Assembly (NCBI RefSeq): GCF_001467625.1
Contig: NZ_LNYB01000009.1
Location: 1 to 58,854 of the forward strand
Length of the DNA: 58,854 nucleotides
Origin: Legionella feeleii
GTDB taxonomy: Bacteria > Pseudomonadota > Gammaproteobacteria > Legionellales > Legionellaceae
Direction of reading: 5' to 3'
Shown piece after piece: positions 42,524-58,233 of this stretch (position 1 is the first letter of the stretch; each line of letters begins with the position of its first letter). The position numbers were made by a program, and so were the translations under genes. The notes below the pieces were generated by a model. It saw nothing but the letters and a program-made list of their open reading frames with translations, searched no databases and had not been told where the DNA came from.

Positions 42524-42918
42524 GGGGGCGACCTGGTTTCGACGTGGGTTGCGAAACCTGATGTGCATGCCGAGAATGAGAACTCTCGTAAATCAGACTC
42601 ACTAAATATAAATGCAAACGATGAAAACTTTGCAGGTGAAGCTATCGCTGCGTAAGCTTTGATAGTGTAACCGCACCGTGCGCTGCCATAAAACCAGCGC
42701 CCCGTTGACCGAGCTTGCTTACCGGTATCGAATCAACGGTCATAGAAGATAAGCTCGCATCTTGGTCCGTCCCGCATCAAGGTGTTAAATCAAGGGAATC
42801 GCCGTGTACCATCCTGCCTGTCGGAGGGGCCACGGTTAACTTAATAGACAAGGCTACGCATGTAGAGCTGACGGCAGAGGATTTGCGGACGCGGGTTCGA
42901 TTCCCGCCGCCTCCACCA
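42524..42918 (+). ncRNA. ssrA: Transfer-messenger RNA (tmRNA)
   Basis: tmRNA rescues stalled ribosomes and tags the unfinished protein. The 5' end GGGGGCG pairs with CGCCTCC at the 3' end, leaving ACCA. The T-arm GCGGGTTCGATTCCCGC is present. The reading frame beginning GCAAACGATGAAAAC encodes ANDENFAGEAIAA then TAA, close to the known Legionella tag ANDENFAGGEAIAA. The usual TGCATGCCGAGAATGAG region after the 5' stem also matches. Length 395 bases. Its 3' end is the integration site of the following element and has been left intact. Confidence 0.96.
42896..42918 (+). repeat. Left attachment repeat (attL) in ssrA
   Basis: The last 19 bases ATTCCCGCCGCCTCCACCA (42900-42918) recur exactly at 58215-58233; extending four bases to the left gives 23 bases with one G/A mismatch. 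Confidence 0.9.
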
Positions 42919-43031: not shown

Positions 43032-43081
43032 TGTTGGTACTATCGTTGGTATTTTCGATACCAACACTATGTGATACCAAC
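43032..43081. repeat. GTTGGTA repeat cluster, probable integrase arm sites
   Basis: GTTGGTA occurs twice forward (43033-43039, 43045-43051) and twice inverted as TACCAAC (43059-43065, 43075-43081), just before the integrase ATG. The forward pair, 12 bases apart, recurs at the right end of the element. Integrase or excisionase binding and autoregulation are inferred. Confidence 0.6.
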
Positions 43082-43084
43082 AAA

Positions 43085-44278
43085 ATGAAATTAACTCTTC
43101 CAGATGTAAAGAAAAAGAGAGAATTGGACAAGCCCTTAAAGCTTTCCGATGGCCAGGGATTATTTTTACTGATTCAACCAAACGGGAAAAAATATTGGCG
43201 CTACTCCTATCGTTTTGACGGAAAACAGAAAACGCTCGCATTGGGGGTGTTTCCTGAAGTAAGTTTAGCTGAAGCACGGGATTTACGAGAAGAGGCCCGT
43301 GCTTTGTTAAAAAAGACGAAAGTCGATCCCGGTGAGCATCGCAAAGCTCTAAAACAGGCGCGAACAAGTCAGGATATGGATAGCTTTGAAGTTGTGGCTC
43401 GCGAATGGTTTGCTAATCAGTCCAGCGTATGGGTTCCTACCCATGCAGATAAAATCATTCGTCGTCTTGAACGCGATATTTTTCCTTGGCTTGGTGCCAG
43501 CCCTATTGCATCGATTACCGCACAACAGTTATTAATTGCCGCACGACGTATCGAAGAGCGTGGTGTTAAAGAAACAGCTCGGCGAGCCTTGCTAAATTGT
43601 AGCCAGGTATTTCGCTATGCCATAGCAACAGGAAGGGCTGAACGTGATCCGGTGCCTGATCTGAAGGGAGCACTTCAACCGGCCAAAACCACTCATTTCG
43701 CAACCATGACCGAGCCTAAAGCAATAGGGGAGTTATTACGGGCTATAGATAACTATCATGGAAGTTTTGTAACCAAATGTGCTTTACAGATTGCACCAAT
43801 GGTATTTGTGCGACCTGGTGAATTGAGGGCGGCAGAATGGTGTGAGATCGATCTTGATACTGCGGAATGGAATATAAAAGCTGAGCGTATGAAAATGCGT
43901 GTTGCGCACCTAGTCCCTTTGTCGAGACAGACTGTTTCTATATTAAGAGAGCTTTATCCTCTAACTGGTCATGGCAAATATGTGTTTGCAAGCGAACATA
44001 CCAGTGCCCGTCCAATGAGTGAAAATACGCTTAATTTTGCGTTTCGTCGGATGGGATTTGCCAAAACTGAAATTAGTGCACATGGTTTTCGTGCAATGGC
44101 TCGCACAATTCTTGATGAAATTTTGCATATACGACCGGACTATATTGAACACCAACTTGCTCACGCAGTAAGAGATCCTAATGGGCGAGCATACAACCGC
44201 ACCTCACACTTATTAGAACGTAAAGTCATGATGCAGAAATGGGCGGATTATTTGGATGGTTTAAAAAGCCAAAATTAA
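43085..44278 (+). CDS. int: P4-type tyrosine integrase
   Basis: The product has 397 residues. The N-terminal arm-binding domain (DUF4102-like) has KLSDGQGLFLLIQPNGKKYW and LGVFPEVSLAEARD. The core-binding part follows, then the catalytic region: Arg in VRPGELRAAEW, HGFRAMART (H-x-x-R) and the nucleophile Tyr370 in AYNRTSHL. Such integrases use tRNA and tmRNA genes as sites. The start is the ATG 51 bases inside a longer frame that would run through the repeat cluster. It begins 166 bases after ssrA, as expected for an integrase reading away from attL. Confidence 0.94.
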   Translation: MKLTLPDVKKKRELDKPLKLSDGQGLFLLIQPNGKKYWRYSYRFDGKQKTLALGVFPEVSLAEARDLREEARALLKKTKVDPGEHRKALKQARTSQDMDSFEVVAREWFANQSSVWVPTHADKIIRRLERDIFPWLGASPIASITAQQLLIAARRIEERGVKETARRALLNCSQVFRYAIATGRAERDPVPDLKGALQPAKTTHFATMTEPKAIGELLRAIDNYHGSFVTKCALQIAPMVFVRPGELRAAEWCEIDLDTAEWNIKAERMKMRVAHLVPLSRQTVSILRELYPLTGHGKYVFASEHTSARPMSENTLNFAFRRMGFAKTEISAHGFRAMARTILDEILHIRPDYIEHQLAHAVRDPNGRAYNRTSHLLERKVMMQKWADYLDGLKSQN

Positions 44279-44293
44279 TAACAAGGAAGATTA

Positions 44294-44929: not shown

Positions 44930-44932
44930 TAG

Positions 44933-44959
44933 TTGGCAGAATCCTTCTGATTCTGCCAA
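44933..44959 (+). terminator. Terminator of the int operon
   Basis: Perfect 11-base arms TTGGCAGAATC and GATTCTGCCAA with a CTTCT loop, followed by a TA-rich stretch. Confidence 0.75.
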
Positions 44960-45006
44960 TTACATAATTTAACTTATGTATTCCCTATGATTTTTAAGGA
45001 ATACAA

Positions 45007-45225
45007 ATGATAAACAATACCCTCCAAGTCTTAATTCGCCGTAAAGAAGTTGAGAGACTTACCACATTATCTCGCTCCAGAATTTATGCACTGATGCAAC
45101 AAGGCATATTTCCGAAACCAATTTCACTAGGAAAAATGTCTGTCGCGTGGGTAGAATCAGAAGTGCAAGAATGGGTTGCTGCACGTATTGCAGGCTGTCG
45201 TAACACAACGGAGGTGCTTAAATGA
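45007..45225 (+). CDS. alpA: AlpA-family transcriptional regulator
   Basis: The product has 72 residues. LIRRKEVERLTTLSRSRIYALMQQGIFPKPISLG followed by VAWVESEVQEWVAARI is the AlpA/excisionase-like winged helix-turn-helix found in P4-like elements, where it controls excision or integrase expression. It begins the replication gene group and overlaps the next gene by four bases (ATGA). Confidence 0.9.
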   Translation: MINNTLQVLIRRKEVERLTTLSRSRIYALMQQGIFPKPISLGKMSVAWVESEVQEWVAARIAGCRNTTEVLK

Positions 45226-45560
45226 AAAAGCCCACTTCCAGGAAAGAAAAAGCAGGCCATGAGAACGCCGCCGAGTATAATCCCAAGAGTAAGCATCTGC
45301 AATCTGTAATTATACAAGGCTCTGCATGTCAATATATCAGGCTTTATAATAAGCAACTGAAAATAGATGTTCCAATAGATTCAGATACCGAAATACTTGG
45401 TGCAGGCGCATATTTTCCTCCTTTCATATGGGGAAGAGAAATAGATTGTCGATGCCTTGGGTTATGGAGCGATGTACCCGAACAGCACAAACCTGATTAC
45501 GAGATCGAGGATTTATCCCCATTAGTTGAGTTTTTTCGATTAGGGGGACATTTAAAATGA
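45222..45560 (+). CDS. Small element protein, paralogue A
   Basis: The product has 112 residues. The core ILGAGAYFPPFIWGREIDCRC and GLWSDV is shared with the next gene (IGAGAYFSPFTLADIDCRC, GLWDDL). It also ends like it with a PLVEFFRLGG block. The family is unrecognised; the paired Cys could bind a metal. ATGA overlaps on both sides join it to alpA and its paralogue. Confidence 0.65.
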   Translation: MKKPTSRKEKAGHENAAEYNPKSKHLQSVIIQGSACQYIRLYNKQLKIDVPIDSDTEILGAGAYFPPFIWGREIDCRCLGLWSDVPEQHKPDYEIEDLSPLVEFFRLGGHLK

Positions 45561-45883
45561 ATCGGATTAACAATCGCCCATACTTGCAGATTATAACTTT
45601 TTGTGGTGAAGCTTATCATTATTTAGAAGATCATTATTGCCGTTTCAATATAGTTGCATATCCTATTTTTATATCACCTGACTATCAGGCTTTAATTGGT
45701 GCAGGAGCTTATTTTTCTCCCTTTACGCTGGCTGATATAGATTGTAGATGTGATGGGTTATGGGATGATTTAATTAACGAAGCAAAAAGCATAATTTTTT
45801 CAAAGCAATGTGATTTAACACCAATAGTTAAATTTATGCAGATGGGAGGCATAGGATATGGATACCCTACCTACCGCGTATAA
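45557..45883 (+). CDS. Small element protein, paralogue B
   Basis: The product has 108 residues and is the sister of the preceding 112-residue protein: IGAGAYFSPF, DIDCRCDGLWDD and DLTPIVKFMQMGG align in order. Its end overlaps the replication protein gene by 26 bases. Two diverged tandem copies suggest a heteromeric or redundant role in replication or its control. The function is not known. Confidence 0.65.
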   Translation: MNRINNRPYLQIITFCGEAYHYLEDHYCRFNIVAYPIFISPDYQALIGAGAYFSPFTLADIDCRCDGLWDDLINEAKSIIFSKQCDLTPIVKFMQMGGIGYGYPTYRV

Positions 45884-47885
45884 TGCTTTAATGCAGTATC
45901 CTCAATTTATAGTTTGTAGGTACGTACCCAAAGGAAATAAGTACGATAAGATACCAATTCATGCTGGAACACTATCACCCTGTAATGCACATAACCCCGT
46001 AAATTGGATGACAGCCGAAGAAGCCCTACTCAAGGCAAGTCTGCTAGGCCCAGAGTATGGTATAGGTTTTGTATTTACAAAAGATGATCCATTCTGGTTT
46101 GTGGATATAGATGATTGCCTGGTAGATGGTGCCTGGAATGCATTAGCAATAGAAATATGTAATGAACTTAAGGGAGCTCTCGTAGAGATATCGCATTCAG
46201 GCAAAGGGCTGCATATCATTGGAACAGGTAAGGCCCCAGCGCATTCATGTCGGAACGATAAATTAAAGTTAGAATTTTACACCCAAGATCGATTTGTGGC
46301 TTTAACTGCTATTGGCGTTAGTGGTGATTCGGGAGTTAATCTTGAACATTGCATACATCTCATTACAAATAGATTAAAAGCTCCTGTAATAATAAATCAG
46401 AACTGGACAAACGAATCTGAGACAACATGGAGTGGCCCCCTTGATGATGATGTACTCCTGGAAAAAGCATTGAAGTCACAGTCAAGTGCGACTATTTTTG
46501 GTAGCAAAATTTCATTTAAAGAATTATTCAATGCCGATACTGATGCATTAGTAAAAATGTTTCCTGATCCTGGGCGTGCTATAGGATACGATGAAAGTAG
46601 AGCGGATGCTTCGCTTGCACAACATTTAGCTTTTTGGGTTGGTAACAACTGCGAACGTATTGAGCGGATAATGTCACGTTCTAGATTATTTCGTGAAAAA
46701 TGGAAGCGTGAAGATTATCTTCAACGAACAATTCTCTTTGCGTGTGCAAATCAAAAAGTTTTTTTACAGGATACGAAATCCAATATTGTTAATTCGGGTG
46801 AGTTATCACAGTTCTCCCAAAGCGTAATGCCTTCAAAATTTGCGGTCATATCCGCTGTAGAATTTGCATCAATTAAGACTCCTCCCTGGATTATTAAAGG
46901 AGCTCTTCCACTCGCTGAGCTTGCTATGGTTTTTGGAGCATCGGGTAGTGGTAAGTCATTTCTGGTTCTTGATTTGGCATTTTCAATTTGTCGTGGAGTT
47001 AAATGGTGTGGCCACAAAGTACGTCAAGGTCGAGTCGTTTATGTAGCTGCTGAGGGCTCCGGGGGATTAAGTAAGCGTTTGGTAGCATATGCGAGTCATC
47101 ATAAGATTGATTTAAGTTCGCTACCTTTAGATATTATTACAGGGGTACCAAATTTTCTTGGACAGGGTGATCCCATTGAATTGGGTCGGGCAATTGGAAA
47201 AGCTACACTGATTGTGCTTGATACACTTGCCTGCATTGCTGCTGGTGGGGACGAAAATTCAAGCTCAGATATGGGTAGTGTACTCACTCAATGTAAATTA
47301 CTTCATGCATCAACGGGCGCATTAATTATGCTTGTACATCACATGGGTAAAGATTCAAAAAGAGGTGCACGTGGGTGGTCTGGTTTACGAGCTGCTGTTG
47401 ATGCTGAAATGGAGGTCACACGCTCTCCGAATGGATTTCAAATGCGCATTACAAAATTAAAGGACGGTGAAGATGGAAAAGCATATGATTTTAGATTATT
47501 ACCCATAGAGCTTGGTATGGATGAGGATGGAGAGCTACAAAATAGTTGTGTAGTTGAACATATTGGTTTTCAGAATCAACCAGTTAAGGCCCTCACAGGC
47601 TTATGGGAGCAGCATATGATGACAGTTATAGAGAAACTTGCTAATGATGGTAAAGTAGCAGAAAAAGACGTGGTGGAGTATGTCATTGGTATGATGCCCC
47701 AACCGGAGGGTAAGCAACGTGATCAACGAAAAACAACCGTAACCCGGACGAAAAATAATTTGGAAAAAAAAGGATATTTTTCTGTTAGGGATGGAGTGAT
47801 TTTTACTTCGGTTAATGCACACGCAGCGACAATCTTTGGAGGAGTCGCACATACTTCAACCATGCTACATGCTTCATCTCCTTAG
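45858..47885 (+). CDS. Primase-polymerase/RepA-type helicase replication protein
   Basis: The product has 675 residues. The N-terminal part (about 1-175) looks like a primase-polymerase: FVDIDDC with Asp83 and Asp85, then EISHSGKGLHIIGTGK. The middle and C-terminal parts form a RecA/RepA-type ATPase: Walker A GASGSGKS (Lys366), VYVAAEGSGGL and the Walker B LIVLDTLA, and VHHMGKDSKRGARGWSG. This domain pairing is that of satellite replication proteins (pri-rep). The C-terminus (from residue 580) is a small winged-helix-like region. The gene is immediately followed by an iteron cluster, its likely origin. Confidence 0.85.
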   Translation: MDTLPTAYNALMQYPQFIVCRYVPKGNKYDKIPIHAGTLSPCNAHNPVNWMTAEEALLKASLLGPEYGIGFVFTKDDPFWFVDIDDCLVDGAWNALAIEICNELKGALVEISHSGKGLHIIGTGKAPAHSCRNDKLKLEFYTQDRFVALTAIGVSGDSGVNLEHCIHLITNRLKAPVIINQNWTNESETTWSGPLDDDVLLEKALKSQSSATIFGSKISFKELFNADTDALVKMFPDPGRAIGYDESRADASLAQHLAFWVGNNCERIERIMSRSRLFREKWKREDYLQRTILFACANQKVFLQDTKSNIVNSGELSQFSQSVMPSKFAVISAVEFASIKTPPWIIKGALPLAELAMVFGASGSGKSFLVLDLAFSICRGVKWCGHKVRQGRVVYVAAEGSGGLSKRLVAYASHHKIDLSSLPLDIITGVPNFLGQGDPIELGRAIGKATLIVLDTLACIAAGGDENSSSDMGSVLTQCKLLHASTGALIMLVHHMGKDSKRGARGWSGLRAAVDAEMEVTRSPNGFQMRITKLKDGEDGKAYDFRLLPIELGMDEDGELQNSCVVEHIGFQNQPVKALTGLWEQHMMTVIEKLANDGKVAEKDVVEYVIGMMPQPEGKQRDQRKTTVTRTKNNLEKKGYFSVRDGVIFTSVNAHAATIFGGVAHTSTMLHASSP

Positions 47886-47958
47886 AGAGATGTAGCATAA
47901 GTAGTAATAAATGGCTGCTACACGTGCTACACGGATACTACATGTAGCACGTGTAGCA
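47862..47958. repeat. TGTAGCA iteron cluster, candidate replication origin
   Basis: The heptamer TGTAGCA occurs six times in 97 bases, three in each orientation: inverted at 47863-47869, 47916-47922 and 47925-47931, forward at 47891-47897, 47943-47949 and 47952-47958. Two form a perfect 15-base inverted repeat (47917-47931 and 47943-47957; 11-base spacer). It adjoins the replication gene, as origins of such elements do. A terminator is the alternative reading of the hairpin. Confidence 0.6.
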
Positions 47959-48091
47959 TAAATATTTATTGGTAAACGGTATAAATTAGCGAATTATTAT
48001 TCGTAACCGTAATTATCCTGTTCATTATGGTTAACGACTATGTACGAAAAAAGGGTTAACGTGCTTGTAAAAAACAAGACAGGAGCAAGCT

Positions 48092-48511
48092 ATGACATTT
48101 AAAACGGGTCAATCAGGAAATCCAAAAGGTAGAAGCAAGGGAACACTTAACAAGCGTACCGAATTTGCAAAATTACTAGACCCTTACGGGGGTGCATTAG
48201 TGGCGAAAGCAATTGAGCTTGCGTTAGGCGGTGATGTTACGGCGTTACGTCTTTGTATAGAACGGTTAATACCTAAAATAAATCGTGAGTCTACGGGAAT
48301 TGAATTCCAAAAAAATACTACTAAGCTAAAAGAGGAAATATTGCATGCGGCATTGGATGGTCGTATCAGTATAGGAGATGCTGAAAGATTAAGAAATTTA
48401 ATTAATGCTGATACGGGCAAAAAAACTACCCCTCTCAGCATTAATACGACTTGCCCAATAGAGGCGGCGAAAATTTATCAACAAATTATGAGGAGCAATC
48501 ATATTTTATAG
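48092..48511 (+). CDS. DUF5681 domain protein
   Basis: The product has 139 residues. The N-terminal KTGQSGNPKGRSKGTLNKRT is the DUF5681 signature, a basic block found in phage proteins often encoded near the terminase. A helical central domain follows (LVAKAIELALGGDVTALRLC). In a satellite context, a link with helper-phage DNA packaging is possible but only inferred. The ATG is preceded by AGGAG. It is convergent with the membrane protein gene (six-base overlap). Confidence 0.8.
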   Translation: MTFKTGQSGNPKGRSKGTLNKRTEFAKLLDPYGGALVAKAIELALGGDVTALRLCIERLIPKINRESTGIEFQKNTTKLKEEILHAALDGRISIGDAERLRNLINADTGKKTTPLSINTTCPIEAAKIYQQIMRSNHIL

Positions 48512-48928
48512 TTTTTTATTTTTTAAAAGTGAACTGCTAATCAGATAAAGGACAAGACCTAATAGCCCACCGCCAATTGCGAATATAAAAACCAATAAAA
48601 CTCCTCCAAATCCAGCCCCTACAGCTCCCGCTCCGCCGAGACTATCATTAGCCTGAGATATCGACGTGATTGTATAAATAATTACACATAGAGGAGACAG
48701 CCAGCATTCATAGGCTGCATACCTGAGAAACTTACCAAAGATATTTTGCCCGCCATTCCTCCAGACGAAATGTAGCAAAAAGAGTATAACGCCTATAAAT
48801 ATCCAGGCAGAAGATGTTTCTTGTACTTCTTCCATGCCATTTAGGATGCTTACAAGAAAGTAGAACCCCACTCCGAGTATTAGTGCCGGAATTAAACTGA
48901 GAAAAGTGGCTTTCAAATATTTGTTCAT
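48506..48928 (-). CDS. Four-helix small membrane protein
   Basis: The product has 140 residues with four hydrophobic helices: SLIPALILGVGFYFLVSIL, SAWIFIGVILFLLHFVW, LSPLCVIIYTITSI and a Gly-rich VGAGFGGVLLVFIFAIGGGL. The start at the ATG with GAGG five bases upstream is preferred to one 57 bases earlier. It follows the OB-fold protein gene by 31 bases in the same direction, so the two form a pair. The family is not recognised. Confidence 0.65.
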   Translation of the reverse strand: MNKYLKATFLSLIPALILGVGFYFLVSILNGMEEVQETSSAWIFIGVILFLLHFVWRNGGQNIFGKFLRYAAYECWLSPLCVIIYTITSISQANDSLGGAGAVGAGFGGVLLVFIFAIGGGLLGLVLYLISSSLLKNKKL

Positions 48929-48959
48929 TTTAACCTCAAAATTGATTCGTTTTATGCGT

Positions 48960-49811
48960 TTAACTATGCTTAAATTTTTCGACATTAATTCCCCGAGTTT
49001 TTAACTCGCTAGAAACTTCAATAATTTGCTGTTTCATCAAATCCTTACCATTAATTTTTTTGTTACTTATAACGTGAATTTCGTTGAGACATTTTTTCTC
49101 GTCAGCGGTAGTAAAACATGCTGATGTATCAGGTAACATTCTTGCGAGAGCTATTAACGGTATTGGGGAATAGACAGTGAGTGTGGATTTAGGTTCATCA
49201 CCTTTTAGAAGAGATGTAATCATGGATTTAATTTCGACAACTCTTTTTTGAGCATAGTCACTGGCGAATTGGCAGTCACTAAAAATAGGTGTGCCTATAG
49301 TTGCCCCCTGACCTTTGCATACTAAATATATTTTTTGTTCTTTTTTTAGTGTTGCGATTTTTGGAGTATTGCCTTTTTGAAAGTGAGCTTGTGGTAATAA
49401 GAATGGATTTACACCATATAAAGAAAGATAAGGAGTATTACCTAATCCACTGTTGATACTTTGGACTTCCCCTGAAATAAATAATAGTTTTTTGTAATAC
49501 TGCTGATCAGCCGCAACCTGATTATTATTATAATCCTGTGCAATCTGTTTGACAGATGCAGATATCAATTCGTCTTTTAATAAGGCAGCATCACCTTTTG
49601 AAAAGGCCTCAATATCTTCTTTGAATATAATATTCAAAATGGCTAATTCTTTGTTAGACATAATATAGCCCTTTGATGCAGTAGACTTATTGGGTTTTTT
49701 TATATCTCTGGTATTAGTAAAGATGCTAATCACCAGGATACTTGCCAATATAACTGCAGCATATTGTAATATTTTAGTTTTTTTAAATACTAAATTGATT
49801 GCCTTATTCAT
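48960..49811 (-). CDS. Membrane-anchored protein with a tRNA_anti-like OB domain
   Basis: The product has 283 residues. One N-terminal transmembrane helix (ILQYAAVILASILVISIF) is followed by about residues 95-175 that match the tRNA_anti-like OB-fold: LFISGEVQSINSGL, PYLSLYGVN, KKEQKIYLVCKGQGA and a final DCQF. The C-terminal third contains two close Cys (SACFTTADEKKCL). The OB domain would lie outside the cytoplasm if the N-terminus is inside. First gene of the reverse membrane pair. Similar proteins occur in mobile elements without a known role. Confidence 0.6.
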   Translation of the reverse strand: MNKAINLVFKKTKILQYAAVILASILVISIFTNTRDIKKPNKSTASKGYIMSNKELAILNIIFKEDIEAFSKGDAALLKDELISASVKQIAQDYNNNQVAADQQYYKKLLFISGEVQSINSGLGNTPYLSLYGVNPFLLPQAHFQKGNTPKIATLKKEQKIYLVCKGQGATIGTPIFSDCQFASDYAQKRVVEIKSMITSLLKGDEPKSTLTVYSPIPLIALARMLPDTSACFTTADEKKCLNEIHVISNKKINGKDLMKQQIIEVSSELKTRGINVEKFKHS

Positions 49812-50074
49812 TGAGCACCTCAAGTAATTATATAAATCAGCTAGATTTCACAAAGATATTTCCTCAGAAAAATCTTCTTTTTAACAAATCCCTGTTTATT
49901 ATTATTTGATTGTATGTGTAAGGTTTTTTGGTACGCAGAATTTTCTGATCGGATTTACCAAATGATGTTGACTGATTAATAGCTCTAATTTGGAGCTAAA
50001 CAAGCAACTCACCGCACTATACACCATGTATCATAATATGTATAGGATTCCTAAGTATCTAGAGGGTGTAAAAA

Positions 50075-50089
50075 CTTAGATTCTCTAAG
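50075..50089. promoter_or_regulatory. Palindrome upstream of the XRE regulator, possible operator
   Basis: CTTAGA, TTC, TCTAAG forms a perfect six-base inverted repeat 27 bases before the regulator ATG. Self-binding is inferred from position. Confidence 0.45.
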
Positions 50090-50116
50090 CTTGTAATATA
50101 TTTTTGCGAGCTTGAA

Positions 50117-50425
50117 ATGAATGATTCTCCTTTATGTAAAAGACTTAAGGAAGCACGTCTAGCGGCAAATTTCTCTCAGAAAAAATTAGGTATTGAGGCT
50201 GGCATGGATCAGTTTTCTGCAAGCGCTCGTATGAATCATTATGAGATGGGCAGACATACCCCTGATTATTCAACATTAAAAAGGATAGCAACGGTACTAA
50301 ATCTACCTGTGGCTTATTTTTATGCTGAATCAGATGAACTTGCTGAGTTTATTAAGGTTTTTAACAGATTAAAAAAAGAAGAAAGGATTAACGAACTTTG
50401 GGAATTAATGAGTAAGAATTTTTAA
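50117..50425 (+). CDS. XRE-family helix-turn-helix regulator
   Basis: The product has 102 residues. LCKRLKEARLAANFSQKKLGIEAGM followed by NHYEMGRHTPDYSTLKRIATVLNLP is the Cro/C1-type domain. It ends 92 bases before the C5 methyltransferase gene in the same direction. In many restriction-modification loci a similar small protein (controller or C protein) regulates expression; that is plausible here, but C proteins are usually about 80 residues. Confidence 0.85.
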   Translation: MNDSPLCKRLKEARLAANFSQKKLGIEAGMDQFSASARMNHYEMGRHTPDYSTLKRIATVLNLPVAYFYAESDELAEFIKVFNRLKKEERINELWELMSKNF

Positions 50426-50517
50426 TAATAAAACGTATTCCATTTATTATTGTTCAAATAATAACATTATATATGCGAGGAATATTTGTGCCATAATGAC
50501 AGATAAATTCCCTGATA

Positions 50518-51795
50518 ATGGATAATAATAAGATGGAAAACCAACCAGAATATAATAATTTTTCAGAGCTTCGAGTCAAAAGTGGTCTTACAATTGCGGA
50601 AGTCACAGATTTTTTAGGTATATCAGAAAGTACCGTATATCGTTGGGAGCGAGGTGAGACACTGCCCAAAAAGGGAATCATTAACCTTATGATCTCAAAA
50701 ACAAAAGATAAAAATATTACCTCCCCAGATAACATGTTCAGATTTATAGATCTTTTTGCTGGTATCGGAGGATTTCGCAAAGCTTTTGATGAGATTGGTG
50801 GAAAATGTGTATTTACCAGTGAGTGGGATAAGTATTCTCAGCTTACTTACAAAGCGAATTATCACTGTGATCACGAAGTTGCCGGTGACATTACAAAAAT
50901 AGAAGCCCATGAGATTCCCGCCCATGATGTTTTATTAGCCGGATTTCCATGCCAGCCATTCAGCTTGGCTGGAGTCAGTAAAAAAAATAGTTTAGGGCGT
51001 CAACATGGTTTTTCGTGCGAAACTCAAGGAACACTCTTTTTTGATGTCGCTCGCCTTATTGATTATCACCGTCCTAAAGCTTTTCTACTTGAGAATGTGA
51101 AAAATCTTGTTAGTCATGATAAAGGAAAAACTTTTCAGGTTATCAAAAAAGTTTTAACAGAAGATCTTGGCTACCATATTAAATGGAAAATTTTGGATGC
51201 AAGAGCATGGGTGCCTCAACATCGAGAGCGAATATTCATTGCTGGTTTTATTGAAGATACAGGTTTTAATTTCGATGACCTTGATATACCGGATATAATA
51301 ACCCACCCCAAACTGTCAACAATATTGCATACTCAGAATGGATTGGAAGATCCAGAACCACCTTATACTCTTCCTGAAAGTGCTCAGGTTTCAGATAAAT
51401 ATACTCTTTCAGATAAATTATGGAATTATTTGCAAGCTTATGCAGAAAAACATCGTGCGCAGGGTAATGGTTTTGGCTTTGGTCTTAATACACCAGATAA
51501 TGTAGCTCGTACCCTATCAGCCAGATATCATAAGGATGGCTCTGAAATTTTAATTTATCAAGGCACGGATAAAAATCCAAGAAGATTAACTCCCAGAGAG
51601 TGTGCAAGATTAATGGGATTCGACTCTCCAAAAGAGAAAAAATTTAAAATCCCTGTTTCAGATACGCAATCTTACAGACAATTTGGAAATGCTGTTGTTG
51701 TCCCAGTGGTTAAAGCGGTAGCTCAACATATGATGCCTCATATTAATACGCTGGTCACAGCGAATTTTAAAGAGACCGCACTCGAGAATGCCTGA
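50518..51795 (+). CDS. dcm: HTH-fused DNA (cytosine-5) methyltransferase
   Basis: The product has 425 residues. An N-terminal helix-turn-helix (SGLTIAEVTDFLGISESTVYRWERG) precedes a complete C5 methylase: motif I FIDLFAGIGGF, motif IV GFPCQPFSLAG with the catalytic Cys145, motif VI FLLENVKN, motif VIII QHRERIF, motif IX region RLTPRECARLMGFD and motif X RQFGNAVVVPVV. The N-terminal HTH is typical of autoregulated methylases such as M.SsoII and M.EcoRII. It overlaps vsr by eight bases. The companion nuclease suggests a CCWGG- or CCSGG-like target, which is inference. Confidence 0.93.
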   Translation: MDNNKMENQPEYNNFSELRVKSGLTIAEVTDFLGISESTVYRWERGETLPKKGIINLMISKTKDKNITSPDNMFRFIDLFAGIGGFRKAFDEIGGKCVFTSEWDKYSQLTYKANYHCDHEVAGDITKIEAHEIPAHDVLLAGFPCQPFSLAGVSKKNSLGRQHGFSCETQGTLFFDVARLIDYHRPKAFLLENVKNLVSHDKGKTFQVIKKVLTEDLGYHIKWKILDARAWVPQHRERIFIAGFIEDTGFNFDDLDIPDIITHPKLSTILHTQNGLEDPEPPYTLPESAQVSDKYTLSDKLWNYLQAYAEKHRAQGNGFGFGLNTPDNVARTLSARYHKDGSEILIYQGTDKNPRRLTPRECARLMGFDSPKEKKFKIPVSDTQSYRQFGNAVVVPVVKAVAQHMMPHINTLVTANFKETALENA

Positions 51796-52243
51796 CATCG
51801 TAAATAAATCCAAACGCAAAGAGATGATGGCCGGTATTCGCAGTAAAAATACACGGCCAGAACTACTGATTCGGCAACAATTATTTGCCAGAGGTTTTAG
51901 GTATAGACTCCATAGAAAGGATTTACCCGGCAAACCGGATATCATTTTAAAAAGATATAATGCTGTAATTTTTATAAATGGATGCTTTTGGCATTGTCAT
52001 AATTGCCACTTATTTAAATGGCCACAAACCAGACAAGAATTCTGGGAAAAAAAGATTATGTCTAATACACTCCGAGATGGAAAAAATTATGCATTACTCA
52101 AAGAAAATGGCTGGCGAGTGCTTGTTATATGGGAGTGCTCGTTAAAAGGGAAATTCAAGCAGGATCTCTCTCATCTTATGTCAAAAATTGAACAGTGGAT
52201 ATTTAGTGATTCAGAATATGATAATATTCAGGGAATCTATTAA
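51788..52243 (+). CDS. vsr: Very short patch repair endonuclease (Vsr)
   Basis: It nicks DNA 5' of T:G mismatches left by deamination of 5-methylcytosine, protecting against the mutagenic side of the methylase. The product has 151 residues. MAGIRSKNTRPELLIRQQL, GKPDIILKRYNAVIFINGCFWHCHNC (Zn-binding His and Cys) and ENGWRVLVIWECSL are diagnostic. It overlaps the methylase (eight bases) and the restriction gene (26 bases), so all three are coupled. Confidence 0.95.
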   Translation: MPDIVNKSKRKEMMAGIRSKNTRPELLIRQQLFARGFRYRLHRKDLPGKPDIILKRYNAVIFINGCFWHCHNCHLFKWPQTRQEFWEKKIMSNTLRDGKNYALLKENGWRVLVIWECSLKGKFKQDLSHLMSKIEQWIFSDSEYDNIQGIY

Positions 52244-53597
52244 CTATATCCTGGATATTACATTGATTGACACGCTGGACAAGCTGACATCTTTAATGAA
52301 AGAAAATAATGTCAGCAGATTATATGCCAAGGTTCTGGCTTCAAATGATAACTCTAAAAATCAGATCTATCTCGGGGGCGATTATTCGTCTTTAAATATC
52401 ATACCCAATCTGGGGGTATATGCTGATGATAGTAAAGGAAATCAGGGAAGTAAGCACGACCGCTTCAAAGCAAATATCTTATTTTCGTGGATTGATGAAA
52501 ATGGAATATATCTAGCTCCAAAAGCACAACTAATATTCTACCCTCAATATCCAGAGGTTAGGCTCTCTGGAATATTAATGGGCTGCAAACAATCGCCATC
52601 AAAAATAATCGCTTCAAGAACAACTGGAAGAATTTTATTTTTTGGTGTTACAGAAGATAAAAAAATTATCTCTTATGCTGCAGACCAAGGGAGTCCATTA
52701 GCAAATGAATTAACTCTTTCTTTATCCAAGTATGAAAAAACGGGCGTATTTCATGAAATTCTGTTTGATAATTATGATAGTAAAACATCCAGAATTTTAT
52801 TACTTGATACATTGCGAAAAATTCATCAAAAAGGATGGATTGATTCTAAAAGGTTAAGTCGAGGGGGTATCCTTCTGGAGTGCAATTCAGGTAATTGCGG
52901 AGGATATACTCTTGAGGCAGAGTTAGGGATTAATCCAAATGGAATAGCCGGCCCGGATTTTCATGGGTGGGAAGTGAAACAGCATAATGTCAGATCATTC
53001 GATAAACCAGGTTCTTCGAAAGCAATTACACTCATGACTCCTGAACCAACAGCCGGATTTTACAAAGAGTATGGGGTCGAACAGTTTTTACGAAAGTTTG
53101 GTTATAAAGATAAACATGGTCGTGAAGACAGAATTAATTTTGGTGGAATTTATAGGTGCAATACTCGCGTAATTTCCACAGGATTAACAATGGTGCTTGA
53201 AGGTTTTAATAGTACTTCTTCTAAAATAGAAAATGTAGATGGTGGTATCCATCTTATTAATGATATGAACGAAATTGCCGCAGTATGGAAATTTGAAGAT
53301 ATGATGACTCACTGGAACAGAAAACATGCAAAGTGTGTTTACATACCCTCTCTCTGCAGAACAGAACCGTGCCGGCAGTATTACTTCGGGAACATTATTC
53401 AATTAGCCGAGGGAACAGATTTTATTATATTTTTAAAAGCTATTGCGTCTGGAAAAGTTTATTATGATCCCGCTATAAAATTGGAAAAGGCTTCTACAGC
53501 GAAACCTTTACAAAAACGAAGAAGTCAATTCCGAATCAAAGCAGGCGATATCAATTCAATGTATCATAATGTTGAAAATCATAACCTTTGCGATTAA
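52218..53597 (+). CDS. MvaI/BcnI-family restriction endonuclease
   Basis: The product has 459 residues. The C-terminal domain (from about residue 200) matches the MvaI/BcnI family: GNCGGYTLEAELGI, AGPDFHGWEVKQH with the PD-(D/E)XK residues Asp247, Glu252 and Lys254, then LMTPEPTAGFYKEYG. MvaI and BcnI cut CCWGG and CCSGG. They are about 240 residues, so the N-terminal 200 residues here are extra. I took the first ATG in frame; a TTG at 52263 is a possible alternative start. The methylase and Vsr upstream make a complete system. Confidence 0.85.
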   Translation: MIIFRESINYILDITLIDTLDKLTSLMKENNVSRLYAKVLASNDNSKNQIYLGGDYSSLNIIPNLGVYADDSKGNQGSKHDRFKANILFSWIDENGIYLAPKAQLIFYPQYPEVRLSGILMGCKQSPSKIIASRTTGRILFFGVTEDKKIISYAADQGSPLANELTLSLSKYEKTGVFHEILFDNYDSKTSRILLLDTLRKIHQKGWIDSKRLSRGGILLECNSGNCGGYTLEAELGINPNGIAGPDFHGWEVKQHNVRSFDKPGSSKAITLMTPEPTAGFYKEYGVEQFLRKFGYKDKHGREDRINFGGIYRCNTRVISTGLTMVLEGFNSTSSKIENVDGGIHLINDMNEIAAVWKFEDMMTHWNRKHAKCVYIPSLCRTEPCRQYYFGNIIQLAEGTDFIIFLKAIASGKVYYDPAIKLEKASTAKPLQKRRSQFRIKAGDINSMYHNVENHNLCD

Positions 53598-53933
53598 TGT
53601 GCGATTAAGGTAGCGCACGCGGCCAAAATTGTACTCCTCACTAAGCTTTGGCTCTATCTAAGTTCTTGACATTGATATACATACACTTACGTCAGTAACC
53701 AATCTTCCGATGCTCTAAACCAGCGTTCTGTAGCACATCCTAAATAAATAGCTTATTTTTTAATCAAGCCACGTTTTTTAATTTAATATGTTTGATTTGT
53801 TTATAAGGAGTCATTGAGAAATTATGTCCCTAAAATATATAAAAACAAATTATTGATTGACATCGTAACACCATAATGGTTATATGTATTTGTGTTACAC
53901 CATTGTGGTGTTTTTTTAAAAGGATTTATTCAA
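53598..53933 (+). promoter_or_regulatory. Promoter and leader of the HTH-nuclease-NTPase gene
   Basis: This 336-base gap holds a perfect -35 box TTGACA (53857-53862), a 17-base spacer and a TTATAT -10 box (53880-53885). A palindrome ACCAT, A, ATGGT lies at 53870-53880 inside the spacer. A second inverted repeat ACACCA, TTG, TGGTGT follows at 53897-53911 with seven T after it. Both share ACACCAT, so they may be operators for the gene's own HTH; the second may also work as an attenuator. The 5' part has no gene. Confidence 0.65.
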
Positions 53934-56900
53934 ATGACTGCAAGTAAAGAAAAACAATCTAAATTCATAGAACTCACTCCAGAAGATATTAGACTTATTA
54001 GAGAAAGTTTAGGGTTATCTCAAGCAGAGGCGGGAGAGTTAATTGGAGGCGGACCACGAGCCTTTTCTAAATATGAAAATGGAATTATTAGACCTGCATC
54101 TTCAATACAGATATTACTAAGATTATTAAAAGATGATCCCAGCGCTATAAACAGAATAGCTGGACGAAAAATAGTGCCTATTGATAATGATAGCTTGTTG
54201 CCATTTGAATGTTCAAAAGAACACATTGCCGCACTTAATCCTTATAAATTTACTCAACTGATAAGGCGGCTTCTGAATGCTGAAGCACATAGCAATAACA
54301 TTCAGAAAGATGGTATACACGTAGCTTCAATCATTACTGCACCTGATGGTGGAGAGGACGCTAGAATAGAATGGTCCGGCGGTCCAGAGCATACCAAATA
54401 TCTTCCTTCTCGATTATGTCAATTTCAACTGAAAGCAACAGATATTAATTCAAAAAAAGCTGGAAAGGATGTTTTGACTTCCGCTGGAAATGCTCAACCT
54501 ATGATTACAAGTGTTCTGGAGGCAGGCGGTGCCTATATTATGCTTTGCGCTCGTGCATGCACAAAACGCAAAATACAGGAATGTCAGGAAGAAATAATTA
54601 CCAATTTATGTGCGGTTGGTTTAAATGCATCCAATACAAACATTAAATTTCTTGATGCGGATCAAATCGCCAATTGGGTCAATAATTATCCTTCTGTGGC
54701 AACTTGGGTACTAGAGCAAACACACACTAATATTGCTGGACCTTTTCGAACTTTGGAACATTGGGCTGGCAGGTATGAGTATAATTCAATTTGGGTTACT
54801 GACTCTCGACTTATAGAAATTCAAAAAAGATTACAAGCATCGATCAGTATACCGCAAAGTGTAATCCGGATAGTGGGACCATCTGGGATTGGTAAATCAA
54901 GGCTTGTACTTGAGGCACTTGGTTCTTTTGATTTAGAAAATGAAGATAACAGTTCGTTTCAAAATTTGGTATTGTATGGAGTGGAATCAGAGATTGGATC
55001 TCAAATTGTAAAGCAAATTATTCAAAATTTGGTTGATATAGGAACGAGATTAGTAATCGTTGTCGATCAATGTGTTGAGGAGACACATCTTGATTTGGTA
55101 TCTATAGCTAAGCGGTCTGGAAGTAAAATTTCTCTTGTCACTATTGATTATGAGATACCCAATAATTACCAGTTTTCAAACGATATAGTCTTGGTAGGTA
55201 CTGCTAATTCTTTAGTAATAGATGGTATTATCAAAAATATTTTACCAAATCTTCCTGCAGAAGATCACCAGCGCTTGGTTAAATTTTCTAATGGATTTCC
55301 TCAAATAGCTCAGTTGATTGCTTCTACCTGGAATAGAAATACATCTATTTCTTCGGCCAGCGATAGTATCCTTATTGAAAAAATCATTTTAGGACGGAAT
55401 CCTCATCGTCCTGAATTACTACAAATAGCTGCACAATTACTTAGCGTGTTTGGGCTTTTAGGAATCAAAAAACCTCTTGATAGTGATCTTAAAGAAATAA
55501 TAGTGTTGGCTCATAATTACACGATTGATGATCTATATGTTGCTTTTGAAAGTTTGTGTAACCGACAGGTAGCACAACAACGTGGCCGTTTAATTATACT
55601 TCAGCCAATACCTGTTGCACTTAATTTGGCTGAAAAGCAGTGGAACCAATGGAGTCAAGATAATTGGGACGAAGTACTAACTGGCTCTTTAAATAAAATT
55701 CTTCGAAAACGCGCTGCAAGACAACTTGCACTTCTTAATACAACCCGAATTGCCAAAGATGTCGTGAAACATGTATGTCGTTTTGATGGTCCGTTATATT
55801 CATTAGAAAAAATATCTTTAGATGGAAATATGGAGGTTTTATCATGCCTAGCAGAAGTGGACGCAGAAGTTGTGGTGACTGTATTAGATAATGTAATAAA
55901 TTCTTTGAGTTTATCTGAAATCCAGCTAATACCCATCGAAGTGCGTCGGTATTTAATCTGGGCACTTGAAAAAATAGCTTTCGTTGAAAATACCTTTGAA
56001 GACGGGGCAAATCTACTGCTCAAATTAGCTCTTACTGAAAATAAGTTTAGTGGAAATGATGCCACTACTAAGTTCAAATCCCTTTTCCCTGTCAGTTTAG
56101 CTAATACAGAGACAGGCCCAGAATTAAGATTGCAATTTCTAGATAATATTTTAACAAGTAGTGATTCGAAACAACTTTTATTAGCAACGGAAGCATTACT
56201 GGAGGGTACTAAAACTGATTCTCTCTTCCGCTGGATTGGGCCAGAAATACAGGGTAGTCGTCCTGTATTAAAATCCTGGGCACCCGCCTGTTCCGACGAG
56301 GTGTTGGGTTATGTAAAAGAATGTGCAAATAGAGTAGTGAGGTTAGCTATACGAAATGATGAAATTGGTGAACGAGCAAGATCTGGATTGGGTAGCCAAT
56401 TTAGAATATTTATTCTCAGAGGGTTGATTATTGAGGTAGAAAAATGGGTAGATGAGGTTTCAAAAAGTCATTCTTATTGGCCTGAAGCTTTAGATTCTCT
56501 TAACGATGCCCTTAAATATGACCTCAATACGAATGATAATGAAAATTATACTTCAGTTAAGAACTTAACTGCCAAGCTTGCTCCATCCAACATAAATGAT
56601 CGCCTACGTTTTCTTGTAACAGAAATGCCTTGGGATTATCCTGCAAATGAAAAGCTGGATTTTGAAGAGCGTTCTAAGCGGCAAATCGAAACTATTGAAC
56701 AGCTTGTTAGAGACTTAATGCATCATGAAGTAATTTTATTACAATTTTTGCCAGAATTAAGCTCAGGCTCTCAACGCATGGCAGTATGGTTTGGTCGAGC
56801 TCTTGCCAAATATGTACAAGACTCTACTTTGTGGGAAAGGCATATAATTGGAGCTATTGAGTCTGTCGTTCCGGCTAATCGAAATTTTTCTCTTCTGGCA

Positions 56901-57995
56901 GGATATTACGCTACCCTCGCTAAAAAAGATCCGCACGCTTATGAAAAATTTAAACAACGAGCCTCAACATCTCCTGACTTGGCTCCTGGCCTGCCATTAG
57001 TATTTTGTGTGGCTGGTATTTGTGAGCATGACATTATATTAATATGTAAACTATTGAAGGATTTGATAATACCTTCGTTTGCAATCCATCAATGGGCTTA
57101 TGGTGGCGTTCTTTCAAAATTATCTCCTAAAACCGTAGCGTTATTGTTTGATCAGTTATTTAAAATGGATAGCCAATATTATTTTGTAGGCCTTAACTTA
57201 ATGAGCATGTACACTCATGATCAAAAAGTTCGTTTGGAAAACTTACGACCTCAACTTATTAATGCTGCTGAATATTTAGGCCAAAAATTGAAAACTCAAA
57301 GCAGTTTTCAACGAGATTCATTTGAGTTTATTGAAATGATAAAATGGCTTCTTCTGAAAGGTGCTCAGGATACAGATGCACAAGTTGTTGCAAAAACTCT
57401 TGCCAAGCATTTAGTTATCAAAGAAACAGGGTTGATAATTGATTTTATTAAACCATTGCTGCCAATATTATTAGCAGATTTTTCACAGATCGTTTGGCCA
57501 ATCATAAGCAAGACAATCATTTCTGATAAAATAAATGCCTGGCATTTGGAGCTGGCTCTTGGTAGCAATCTGTCGTTTGATAATAGCCACAATCCACCGA
57601 TATTAAGTCTTCCAAAAGATATGTTATATACGTGGTGTCACGCCCATGGCAGTGTTGGGGCGGCTTTTATTGCAAGCATAATACCGGTTCTTGAAAATCA
57701 AAAATCTGATATATCAACAAAATGTGAGTTTCACCAAATTACTAAATGGCTGATAGATGAGTTTGGTGAGTATGATGACGTATTAAGAGCATTAGATAAA
57801 AATATGCATACTTTTAGTTGGTCTGGAGCACCAATAAATTATTATATTCGTTACGAATATCCTTTTACTCTTATTAAGAATCATCCTAAGGGGAAAGTGC
57901 GACAATGGGTGAAGAGAACTTTAACTAATCTTAAATCCCAGATTGATTCCGAATCCATTAGAGAAGAGGAGCAGGGTGTTGCCTGGGACAATTAA
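53934..57995 (+). CDS. MqsA-type HTH - PD-(D/E)XK nuclease-like - P-loop NTPase protein, candidate defence gene
   Basis: The product has 1353 residues. Residues 14-69 (LTPEDIRLIRESLGLSQAEA... FSKYENG) look like the MqsA-type helix-turn-helix. Next, about 85-240, a restriction-nuclease-like part has TAPDGGEDARIEW (Asp142) and FQLKAT (Gln165, Lys167), the GxxD...QxK pattern of Mrr-like nucleases. A P-loop NTPase follows: Walker A GPSGIGKS (Lys321) and Walker B LVIVVDQC (Asp378). The remaining 800 residues are helical and unrecognised, perhaps a sensor. This is the general plan of STAND-type defence ATPases (effector, NTPase, sensor). The ATG has AGGA ten bases upstream; a GTG 42 bases earlier lies in the leader hairpin. 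Confidence 0.72.
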   Translation: MTASKEKQSKFIELTPEDIRLIRESLGLSQAEAGELIGGGPRAFSKYENGIIRPASSIQILLRLLKDDPSAINRIAGRKIVPIDNDSLLPFECSKEHIAALNPYKFTQLIRRLLNAEAHSNNIQKDGIHVASIITAPDGGEDARIEWSGGPEHTKYLPSRLCQFQLKATDINSKKAGKDVLTSAGNAQPMITSVLEAGGAYIMLCARACTKRKIQECQEEIITNLCAVGLNASNTNIKFLDADQIANWVNNYPSVATWVLEQTHTNIAGPFRTLEHWAGRYEYNSIWVTDSRLIEIQKRLQASISIPQSVIRIVGPSGIGKSRLVLEALGSFDLENEDNSSFQNLVLYGVESEIGSQIVKQIIQNLVDIGTRLVIVVDQCVEETHLDLVSIAKRSGSKISLVTIDYEIPNNYQFSNDIVLVGTANSLVIDGIIKNILPNLPAEDHQRLVKFSNGFPQIAQLIASTWNRNTSISSASDSILIEKIILGRNPHRPELLQIAAQLLSVFGLLGIKKPLDSDLKEIIVLAHNYTIDDLYVAFESLCNRQVAQQRGRLIILQPIPVALNLAEKQWNQWSQDNWDEVLTGSLNKILRKRAARQLALLNTTRIAKDVVKHVCRFDGPLYSLEKISLDGNMEVLSCLAEVDAEVVVTVLDNVINSLSLSEIQLIPIEVRRYLIWALEKIAFVENTFEDGANLLLKLALTENKFSGNDATTKFKSLFPVSLANTETGPELRLQFLDNILTSSDSKQLLLATEALLEGTKTDSLFRWIGPEIQGSRPVLKSWAPACSDEVLGYVKECANRVVRLAIRNDEIGERARSGLGSQFRIFILRGLIIEVEKWVDEVSKSHSYWPEALDSLNDALKYDLNTNDNENYTSVKNLTAKLAPSNINDRLRFLVTEMPWDYPANEKLDFEERSKRQIETIEQLVRDLMHHEVILLQFLPELSSGSQRMAVWFGRALAKYVQDSTLWERHIIGAIESVVPANRNFSLLAGYYATLAKKDPHAYEKFKQRASTSPDLAPGLPLVFCVAGICEHDIILICKLLKDLIIPSFAIHQWAYGGVLSKLSPKTVALLFDQLFKMDSQYYFVGLNLMSMYTHDQKVRLENLRPQLINAAEYLGQKLKTQSSFQRDSFEFIEMIKWLLLKGAQDTDAQVVAKTLAKHLVIKETGLIIDFIKPLLPILLADFSQIVWPIISKTIISDKINAWHLELALGSNLSFDNSHNPPILSLPKDMLYTWCHAHGSVGAAFIASIIPVLENQKSDISTKCEFHQITKWLIDEFGEYDDVLRALDKNMHTFSWSGAPINYYIRYEYPFTLIKNHPKGKVRQWVKRTLTNLKSQIDSESIREEEQGVAWDN

Positions 57996-58014
57996 AATCA
58001 GGCTTTGCTGATTT
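57995..58014 (+). terminator. Terminator after the large nuclease-NTPase gene
   Basis: Arms AAATCAG and CTGATTT with a GCTTTG loop overlap the stop codon and are followed by ATTGATTT. Confidence 0.6.
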
Positions 58015-58028
58015 ATTGATTTAAACAT

Positions 58029-58064
58029 GCCCACGCTATTTTTTGTTCAATGAGTCGCGTGGGC
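58029..58064 (+). terminator. Second hairpin near the right element end
   Basis: Eight-base arms GCCCACGC and GCGTGGGC flank a 20-base loop rich in T and are followed by TTTAAT. It may be a second terminator. Confidence 0.5.
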
Positions 58065-58136
58065 TTTAATAATCATTGTGAATGAAAGAGTCTTGTTATT
58101 AACAAATGAGCAGTATCTTTCAATATCAAAAATATT

Positions 58137-58157
58137 TGTTGGTACTTTTGTTGGTAC
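58137..58157. repeat. Right copy of the GTTGGTA arm repeat
   Basis: GTTGGTA at 58138-58144 and 58150-58156 repeats, with the same 12-base offset, the forward pair at 43033 and 43045. The two 21-base blocks differ at three positions. Confidence 0.6.
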
Positions 58158-58210
58158 ATTTAAAATAAACCAAAAATTTCATCAATAAAATCAACACCAC
58201 AGGAATTGAA

Positions 58211-58233
58211 TTCAATTCCCGCCGCCTCCACCA
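58211..58233 (+). repeat. Right attachment repeat (attR)
   Basis: The 19 bases ATTCCCGCCGCCTCCACCA (58215-58233) equal the 3' end of ssrA. No tRNA or tmRNA body surrounds this copy, which marks the right boundary of the element. Confidence 0.9.

What the first reader, a model, noticed from the sequence alone, without database searches (positions are those of the whole stretch)
53934..57995. Single-gene HTH-nuclease-NTPase-sensor protein: possible new anti-phage system
The protein joins an MqsA-type HTH (14-69), a PD-(D/E)XK-like part (Asp142, Gln165-Lys167), a P-loop NTPase (Lys321, Asp378) and about 800 unrecognised helical residues. The nuclease-NTPase-sensor order is that of Avs/STAND defence proteins, but an antitoxin-type DNA-binding domain at the front is unusual and suggests the effector represses its own gene. 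It sits next to a restriction-modification set in an ssrA island.
Basis: partly seen in the sequence, partly recalled or inferred. Interest (0 to 1): 0.85.

Follow-up and report, generated by a model that had tools for sequence, protein, structure and literature searches.

The report
Self-repressing antiphage nuclease-ATPase protein
A large bacterial immune protein, related to a known phage-defence system, carries a DNA-binding domain of an antitoxin type and the matching binding sites in front of its own gene, so it most likely keeps its own gene quiet, a simple way to hold a dangerous defence in check.

Summary
The protein is real: ATG 53934 to stop 57995, 1353 aa. It joins an MqsA-type HTH (14-74), a probably Mrr-like PD-(D/E)XK nuclease, a STAND NTPase and a HEAT/ARM-like helical solenoid.

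It is not a new kind of system: residues 91-1346 match PADLOC PD-Lambda-4_A, E 3.3e-90. The E. coli system has a second gene, B, not found here.

What is new is the regulation. Within 220 bases upstream, 21 of 30 MqsA-fused members carry ACCA-N3-TGGT, against 0 of 48 HTH-less relatives and 0 of 10 with a hydrolase in place of the nuclease. The window has two copies 29 bp apart. Stand-alone MqsA proteins with Lys in the recognition helix have the same site (7 of 11), and those with Arg have ACCT-N3-AGGT (17 of 23). Nearly all fused proteins have Lys. A distant clade fused to another HTH has other paired palindromes.

Best reading: a STAND nuclease defence protein that represses its own gene. 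Operators are strongly supported, defence rests on homology, and release on phage sensing is inferred. New variant of a known kind.

The parts
53934..57995 (+). Gene for the HTH-nuclease-STAND NTPase-solenoid protein (1353 aa, P0001)
   Evidence: PADLOC PD-Lambda-4_A PDLC03991 E 3.3e-90 over 91-1346
53973..54155 (+). MqsA-type HTH, residues 14-74; Arg42 and Lys46 sit where MqsA has Asn97 and Arg101
   Evidence: 14-75 aligned to 69-130 of 2kz8; recognition helix 43-48 in the model; role of Asn97 and Arg101 from PMC5422877, passages
54216..54728 (+). PD-(D/E)XK (Mrr-like, QxK) nuclease part, about residues 95-265; Glu117, Asp142, Gln165, Lys167
   Evidence: profile match to Mrr_cat (66% probability), control (0.9%)
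54747..55613 (+). STAND (NB-ARC-like) NTPase, about residues 272-560; Walker A Lys321, Asp378
55614..57992 (+). Helical solenoid (HEAT/ARM-like), residues 561-1353, presumed sensor
53870..53880 (.). Operator 1, ACCATAATGGT
53897..53911 (.). Operator 2, perfect palindrome ACACCATTGTGGTGT (core ACCATTGTGGT 53899-53909), 29 bp from operator 1
53857..53862 (+). TTGACA, possible -35 element; operator 1 lies just downstream of it
   Evidence: read; the consensus scan did not report a + strand promoter here
42896..42918 (+). ssrA 3' end, one island boundary repeat
58211..58233 (+). Second copy of the ssrA 3' end (22 of 23), other island boundary, 216 bp after the gene
43034..44278 (+). Island integrase (tyrosine recombinase)
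50117..53597 (+). Type II R-M set: C-type regulator 50117-50425, C5 methylase 50518-51795, Vsr 51788-52243, MvaI/BcnI-type endonuclease 52188-53597 (context)

Best explanation
This is a single-protein STAND immune ATPase of the PD-Lambda-4_A family. The helical solenoid is the presumed sensor of a phage feature; sensing lets the NTPase switch and oligomerise; this brings together and switches on an Mrr-like nuclease that attacks DNA. Its special feature is the front domain: an MqsA-type HTH that binds, as a dimer or more, the ACCA-N3-TGGT palindromes in its own promoter region, so the defence protein is its own repressor and stays scarce. Shown by sequence: the architecture, the catalytic residues, the NTPase fold by model, and the operators tied to the fused HTH and to its recognition-helix Lys. 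From homology: anti-phage function. Inferred: that the HTH binds these sites in the cell, the DNA target of the nuclease, the phage trigger, and that activation takes the protein off its operator and so raises its own synthesis.
For: PD-Lambda-4_A match over the whole body. Conserved Asp142, Gln165, Lys167, Lys321, Asp378. AF2 model of residues 1-560 at pLDDT 89.4, pTM 0.83; NTPase like Apaf-1 and plant NLR NB-ARC; Avs3 (8dgc_B) also among the Foldseek matches, E 1.4e-5. Nuclease: Mrr_cat profile match in register, E-value 5.6e-5, probability 66%, control 0.9%. Operators: exact ACCA-N3-TGGT in 21 of 30 MqsA-fused upstream regions, 0 of 48 HTH-less, 0 of 10 hydrolase-type; 11 of 1916 flanking 220-nt pieces; dinucleotide shuffles mean 0.08 of 30, highest 1. 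Among spacings 0-7, spacing 3 gave 21 and the others 0 or 1. Two sites 28-30 bp apart in 10 of 30, counting sites with one mismatch and two ACCT-N3-AGGT second sites. Same site class in stand-alone MqsA relatives with Lys (7 of 11), the other site with Arg (17 of 23). The 26 full-length MqsA-fused members form one clade, SH-aLRT 100. A distant HTH_37-fused clade has its own palindromes in 4 of 4. Effector replaced by an alpha/beta hydrolase in 10 of 80 loci, as expected of a switchable effector.
Confidence: 0.72

Rival explanations
1. It is a STAND-type transcription regulator (MalT or AfsR-like; recalled comparison) in which the HTH is the output and the nuclease-like part is a degenerate spacer.
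For: HTH plus STAND NTPase is a known regulator layout (recalled). The operators show that the HTH has DNA sites.
Against: Asp138, Asp142, Gln165 and Lys167 are invariant in 61 sequences. 42 of the 80 loci belong neither to the MqsA-fused nor to the hydrolase group and match only from the nuclease part on (some are fragments), and 10 of 80 carry an alpha/beta hydrolase there. The family match is to a phage-defence protein. The HTH is of antitoxin type with the site next to its own gene.
Confidence: 0.1
2. The HTH is part of the sensing: it binds phage or plasmid DNA carrying similar palindromes and triggers the nuclease, and the sites upstream are a by-product of autoregulation or a self-protection tether.
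For: DNA-binding fronts on defence proteins can steer target choice (recalled). The fused domain is kept across at least 26 divergent full-length members.
Against: The sites sit at a steady place just before the start codon, often in pairs, as repressor operators do. Most relatives with the same nuclease, NTPase and sensor lack the HTH, so sensing does not need it.
Confidence: 0.12
3. The upstream palindromes are RNA attenuators or terminators, not protein operators.
For: Operator 2 with its T run was reported as a terminator-like site (1 found, 0.3 expected).
Against: Only 3 of 21 sites-bearing regions (the window, L069 and its near copy L108) have a run of five T close behind a site. The core is 4 bp per arm, spacing is fixed at 3, and the site depends on which HTH is fused and matches that of stand-alone MqsA relatives.
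Confidence: 0.04

Closest known systems
PD-Lambda-4 (PADLOC PD-Lambda-4_A; Vassallo et al. 2022, PMC9519451, passages seen)
   Same: Whole body from residue 91 to 1346 matches the A protein, E 3.3e-90; P-loop NTPase is the feature named for PD-lambda-4 in PMC10952713 (passage).
   Different: MqsA-type HTH in front, which the 1283-position A model and the E. coli protein (L173) lack; no B gene (PDLC03992) beside it or in the genome; identity to the PD-Lambda-4 type members L023, L024, L038 and L041 is 20-22%.
Avs / STAND (NLR-like) anti-phage proteins
   Same: Order effector nuclease, STAND NTPase, helical repeat sensor; Avs3 among the fold matches of the N-terminal part.
   Different: Sensor looks HEAT/ARM-like here, while Avs sensors are described as TPR (recalled); HTH in front; no trigger known.
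MqsA antitoxins
   Same: HTH and an operator of the same geometry: MqsA binds ACCT-N3-AGGT (PMC5422877, passages).
   Different: No zinc-binding front half and no MqsR toxin gene beside it; inner operator base changed to A/T of ACCA/TGGT with Lys for Arg in the recognition helix.
Separate repressors of defence operons (RptR PMC12255303, CapK/CapS PMC13373217, WYL regulators PMC9122601; listings and abstract openings only)
   Same: Transcriptional restraint of a costly defence.
   Different: There the repressor is a separate gene; here it is part of the effector itself.
AcrIF24 (PMC9638941; listing and abstract opening only)
   Same: One protein that is both effector (anti-CRISPR) and repressor of its own gene.
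   Different: A phage anti-defence protein of unrelated make-up.

Membership tests
PD-Lambda-4 system | Protein of the PD-Lambda-4_A family | tested here: met
   PDLC03991 E 3.3e-90, residues 91-1346 to model 4-1273 of 1283
PD-Lambda-4 system | B gene directly beside A | tested here: not met
   E. coli L173 has A then B 45 bp later. In the window no gene of note lies between 57996 and the island end at 58211. B protein: no match in the own genome. Of the loci held, only L173 and L044 match B; many of those loci have short flanks
PD-Lambda-4 system | Protects against phage | not testable with these tools
   No wet work
STAND NTPase | NB-ARC/Apaf-1-like NTPase fold with Walker A and B | tested here: met
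Avs (AVAST) | Effector, STAND NTPase, repeat sensor in this order | tested here: met
Avs (AVAST) | TPR-type sensor that binds a phage protein | tested here: inconclusive
   HEAT/ARM-type chains head the lists; absence of TPR chains from the shown rows excludes nothing; ligand not testable
PD-(D/E)XK, Mrr-like nuclease | Asp and QxK active-site motif in the core fold | tested here: inconclusive
   Motif residues invariant; helix-strand order of the model fits; Mrr_cat profile 66%, 60 columns, control 0.9%; no PDB sequence match
MqsRA toxin-antitoxin | MqsA HTH | tested here: met
MqsRA toxin-antitoxin | MqsR toxin gene beside it and MqsA zinc-binding half | tested here: not met
   Matches begin at MqsA position 56-69; the gene before it is the endonuclease
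MqsRA toxin-antitoxin | ACCT-N3-AGGT operator | tested here: not met
   Window has ACCA-N3-TGGT twice; ACCT-N3-AGGT occurs in 2 of 30 fused upstream regions, L068 and L109

The most novel reading that the evidence does not exclude
A recurrent design in prokaryotic NLR-like immunity: the immune receptor-effector is its own repressor. It has taken over an antitoxin-type DNA-binding domain together with the matching operator pair, so binding to DNA keeps it both scarce and at rest, and oligomerisation on phage sensing removes it from the operator and sets off a burst of its own synthesis. This happened at least twice from different HTH families (MqsA and HTH_37), and the MqsA-derived one spread over many phyla, with a Lys/Arg position in the recognition helix that goes with the operator's inner base.
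Probability: 0.4. Interest if true: 0.8.

Novelty: new variant of a known kind. Interest (0 to 1): 0.6.

Why it matters
STAND immune proteins that kill or halt their own cell must be kept scarce, and for most of them nothing is known of how. Here the restraint is built into the same polypeptide and its sites can be read in the DNA, so the idea is directly testable. It also gives a clean marker for a subfamily that database labels do not separate from PD-Lambda-4, a case of convergent capture of antitoxin-type HTHs by one immune ATPase family, and a testable recognition rule for MqsA-type repressors (Lys with ACCA, Arg with ACCT).

Tried and rejected
Viral and phage homes: no match in phage records or viral contigs (close relatives only). 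Close relatives in the same bacterial family: 21 of 143 genomes gave a match, but 20 of these are to the HTH alone. Alignment A1 could not be used for the contig scan; a narrower one, A2, was used, so the sample of 80 loci (of 112 relatives) leans to members with the motifs DGGED[GA]RI or [NY]L[VI]WALEK.

Palindrome search with spacing 5 for the HTH_37 group found nothing because the spacing was wrong; spacing 4 found the sites in 4 of 4 at up to 2 mismatches, paired in 3 of 4. This half-site was read off these same sequences first, so the count describes rather than tests; no other group had it at up to 3 mismatches (0 of 30, 0 of 48, 0 of 10), and base shuffles of the 4 gave 0.03 on average. 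L025, a partial MqsA-fused protein, has no ACCA site; its place in the tree is unsure, outside the 26-member clade.

Neighbourhood test: 100 ORFs within 5 kb of 12 of 28 fused loci against 91 ORFs of 12 control stretches from the same genomes. 94 PADLOC families were matched against 11 at E 1e-10. The families are redundant (for instance type III methylase models all hit the same 3 ORFs) and one control had an AbiEii gene and 4 ORFs matched mad3, so this is only suggestive. Two of the three type III methylase neighbours may be in related genomes (L067 and L068 lie next to each other in the tree).

No nuclease fold among the rows shown is not evidence of absence. Cap4 nuclease (PF14130) gave 2 of 143 genomes and was not compared further. 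For the Mrr profile 8 of the 13 loci were used.

Rows dropped in the operator count: the short second frame of L082, L088 and L134 (cut at the start), and later fragments of L086, L119, L136 and L138; of the loci from the class, phylum and plasmid searches only 8 HTH-less ones were added. With one mismatch allowed, 2 of 48 HTH-less upstream regions have a site (L097, L143). In one search 18 of 20 loci and 27 of 29 stand-alone loci were examined; 7 of those 27 had no recognisable recognition-helix motif.

Literature: PD-lambda-4 was found in 2 papers. Searches for a fused MqsA or HTH on a STAND or anti-phage nuclease gave listings in which I saw no such case; passages of PMC8195603 and PMC7159879 name HTH domains among effector or adaptor modules of STAND-linked systems, not self-repression. 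Only open-licence papers are held, so this is not proof of novelty.
Full report
What is there. The gene runs from ATG 53934 to the stop at 57995 and encodes 1353 residues. It is the last gene of a 15.3-kb island in ssrA: tmRNA at 42524-42918, a 23-nt repeat of its 3' end at 42896-42918 and 58211-58233, an integrase at 43034-44278, G+C 37.5% against 43.7% in the first 42.5 kb of the window. Just upstream lies a type II R-M set: C-type regulator, C5 methylase, Vsr and MvaI/BcnI-type endonuclease. In the own genome the body occurs once, and none of the other genomes searched in the same family has it (143 genomes, the other 20 matches being to the HTH alone). Two matches to SidE_PDE in the own genome suggest a Legionellaceae host; that SidE marks that group is recalled.

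Family. The body matches PADLOC PD-Lambda-4_A at E 3.3e-90. In E. coli the A protein (L173, 2517.8 bits to the model) is followed by a B gene (653.2 bits); a relative of that A gene covers at least 80% of the query in 165 of 5426 complete E. coli genomes. B was found only at L173 and L044 among the loci held (many have short flanks) and not in the own genome. Relatives of the body were found in 13 of 369 genomes of the class and 20 of 398 of the phylum, several of these being weak partial matches, on 52 plasmid records of which 8 cover at least 80% of the query, in no phage record, and in no viral contig.

N-terminal variety. A contig scan gave 80 loci. 28 match from residue 4-14 on and so carry the HTH; 10 match only from the NTPase on and have an alpha/beta hydrolase in front (Pfam support for two of them); the other 42, some of them fragments, match from the nuclease part on without the HTH. 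Record titles of the 28 name Proteobacteria, Dadabacteria, Bacteroidota and Rhodothermales, Gemmatimonadota, Nitrospinota, cyanobacteria and Bryobacterales, many of them metagenome bins, whose labels may err. Four further relatives (L027, L028, L029, L031) carry a fused HTH_37 domain and one, L045, an XRE-like front judged by eye only. On a quick tree of 88 NTPase-solenoid sequences the 26 full-length MqsA-fused proteins are one clade (SH-aLRT 100), the 4 HTH_37-fused are one clade far from it, and the hydrolase type needs 2 changes.

Operators. Upstream DNA of the MqsA-fused members shares ACCA-N3-TGGT. Within 220 nt before the HTH it is exact in 21 of 30 and within one mismatch in 24 of 30; among HTH-less relatives 0 of 48 exact and 2 of 48 within one mismatch; among hydrolase-type 0 of 10. 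Controls: 11 of 1916 flanking pieces of the same length, 0.09 of 30 in 500 base shuffles and 0.08 of 30 in 300 dinucleotide shuffles, highest 1 in both. Of spacings 0 to 7, spacing 3 gives 21, spacings 0 and 6 one each, the rest none. In the window the sites are 53870-53880 and 53899-53909, the second within a perfect 15-bp palindrome, after TTGACA at 53857. Second sites 28-30 bp away are seen in 8 of 30 at up to one mismatch and, as ACCT-N3-AGGT, in L068 and L109. These two are an exception to the rule in the next paragraph.

A recognition rule. E. coli and P. putida MqsA bind ACCT-N3-AGGT, with Asn97 and Arg101 important (PMC5422877, passages). The window protein has Arg42 and Lys46 there. 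In the fused set Lys is found in 27 of the 28 rows whose motif the script recognised, Glu in one (L077). Stand-alone relatives of the HTH split likewise: with Arg, ACCT-N3-AGGT upstream in 13 of 14 and 4 of 9, ACCA in 0 of 23; with Lys, ACCA-N3-TGGT in 7 of 11 and ACCT in 0 of 11. So the fused domain looks derived from, or shared with, Lys-type MqsA proteins, and its site came with it. Fisher tests give p of 1e-4 or less, but related sequences are not independent.

A second, separate case. The four HTH_37-fused proteins have TATATCA-N4-TGATATA palindromes upstream (4 of 4 at up to 2 mismatches, in pairs 26-29 bp apart in 3 of 4), which the other groups lack even at 3 mismatches. The half-site was read from these four, so this is a description.

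Mechanism. Best supported: a STAND sensor-effector whose nuclease is let loose on phage sensing and whose HTH holds down its own transcription. Shown: architecture, conserved residues, operator association. From homology: defence (PD-lambda-4 was selected as a phage-defence system, PMC9519451, passages). Inferred: DNA as target, trigger, oligomerisation, and release from the operator. The fixed place of the sites, their dependence on which HTH is fused, and the lack of T runs in all but 3 of 21 regions speak against an RNA terminator; the invariant nuclease residues and the effector swaps speak against a pure transcription factor.

Surroundings of relatives. Near 12 fused loci PADLOC families were hit far more often than in matched control stretches (94 against 11 families), with the limits told under Tried and rejected; next-door genes include type III methylases at L067 and L087 and a SIR2-like gene at L066, while L071 has a TauD-like dioxygenase and L074 nothing of the kind.

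Novelty. The kind is known (STAND/PD-Lambda-4). I found no account of an antitoxin-type HTH with its operator fused to such a protein in the open-licence library (listings; 115, 116 passages), which is not proof. I file it as a new variant of a known kind.

Noticed in passing
window 42896-58233: Complete ssrA island of 15.3 kb with both boundary repeats in the window, lower G+C than the rest.
   Followed up: partly
window 50518-51795: The C5 methylase next door also has an N-terminal HTH (HTH_3/HTH_31, weak MqsA-family match), a layout that in M.SsoII-type enzymes serves self-repression (recalled).
   Followed up: no
L113, L115, L121, L122, L123, L128, L129, L133, L142, L144: Same NTPase-solenoid with an alpha/beta hydrolase (VHGLGG, GHSLGG) in place of the nuclease.
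   Followed up: partly
L027, L028, L029, L031: HTH_37-fused relatives with TATATCA-N4-TGATATA palindromes upstream.
   Followed up: partly
L045:486-5259: 1591-residue frame with an XRE-like front and an extra stretch before the nuclease (by eye).
   Followed up: no
L175-L199 and L002-L015: Lys or Arg in the recognition helix of stand-alone MqsA-type proteins goes with ACCA-N3-TGGT or ACCT-N3-AGGT upstream.
   Followed up: partly
L082:9988-10354: A 122-residue frame with a second copy of the HTH start lies just before the fused gene, as if from a partial duplication.
   Followed up: no
E. coli records H43-H47: The E. coli PD-Lambda-4_A gene is split by IS elements (IS1, IS3, IS100) in 5 of the 8 listed records.
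   Followed up: no
window 45858-47885: Island protein with AAA_25 and NrS-1 polymerase HBD domains, perhaps a primase-helicase of the element.
   Followed up: no
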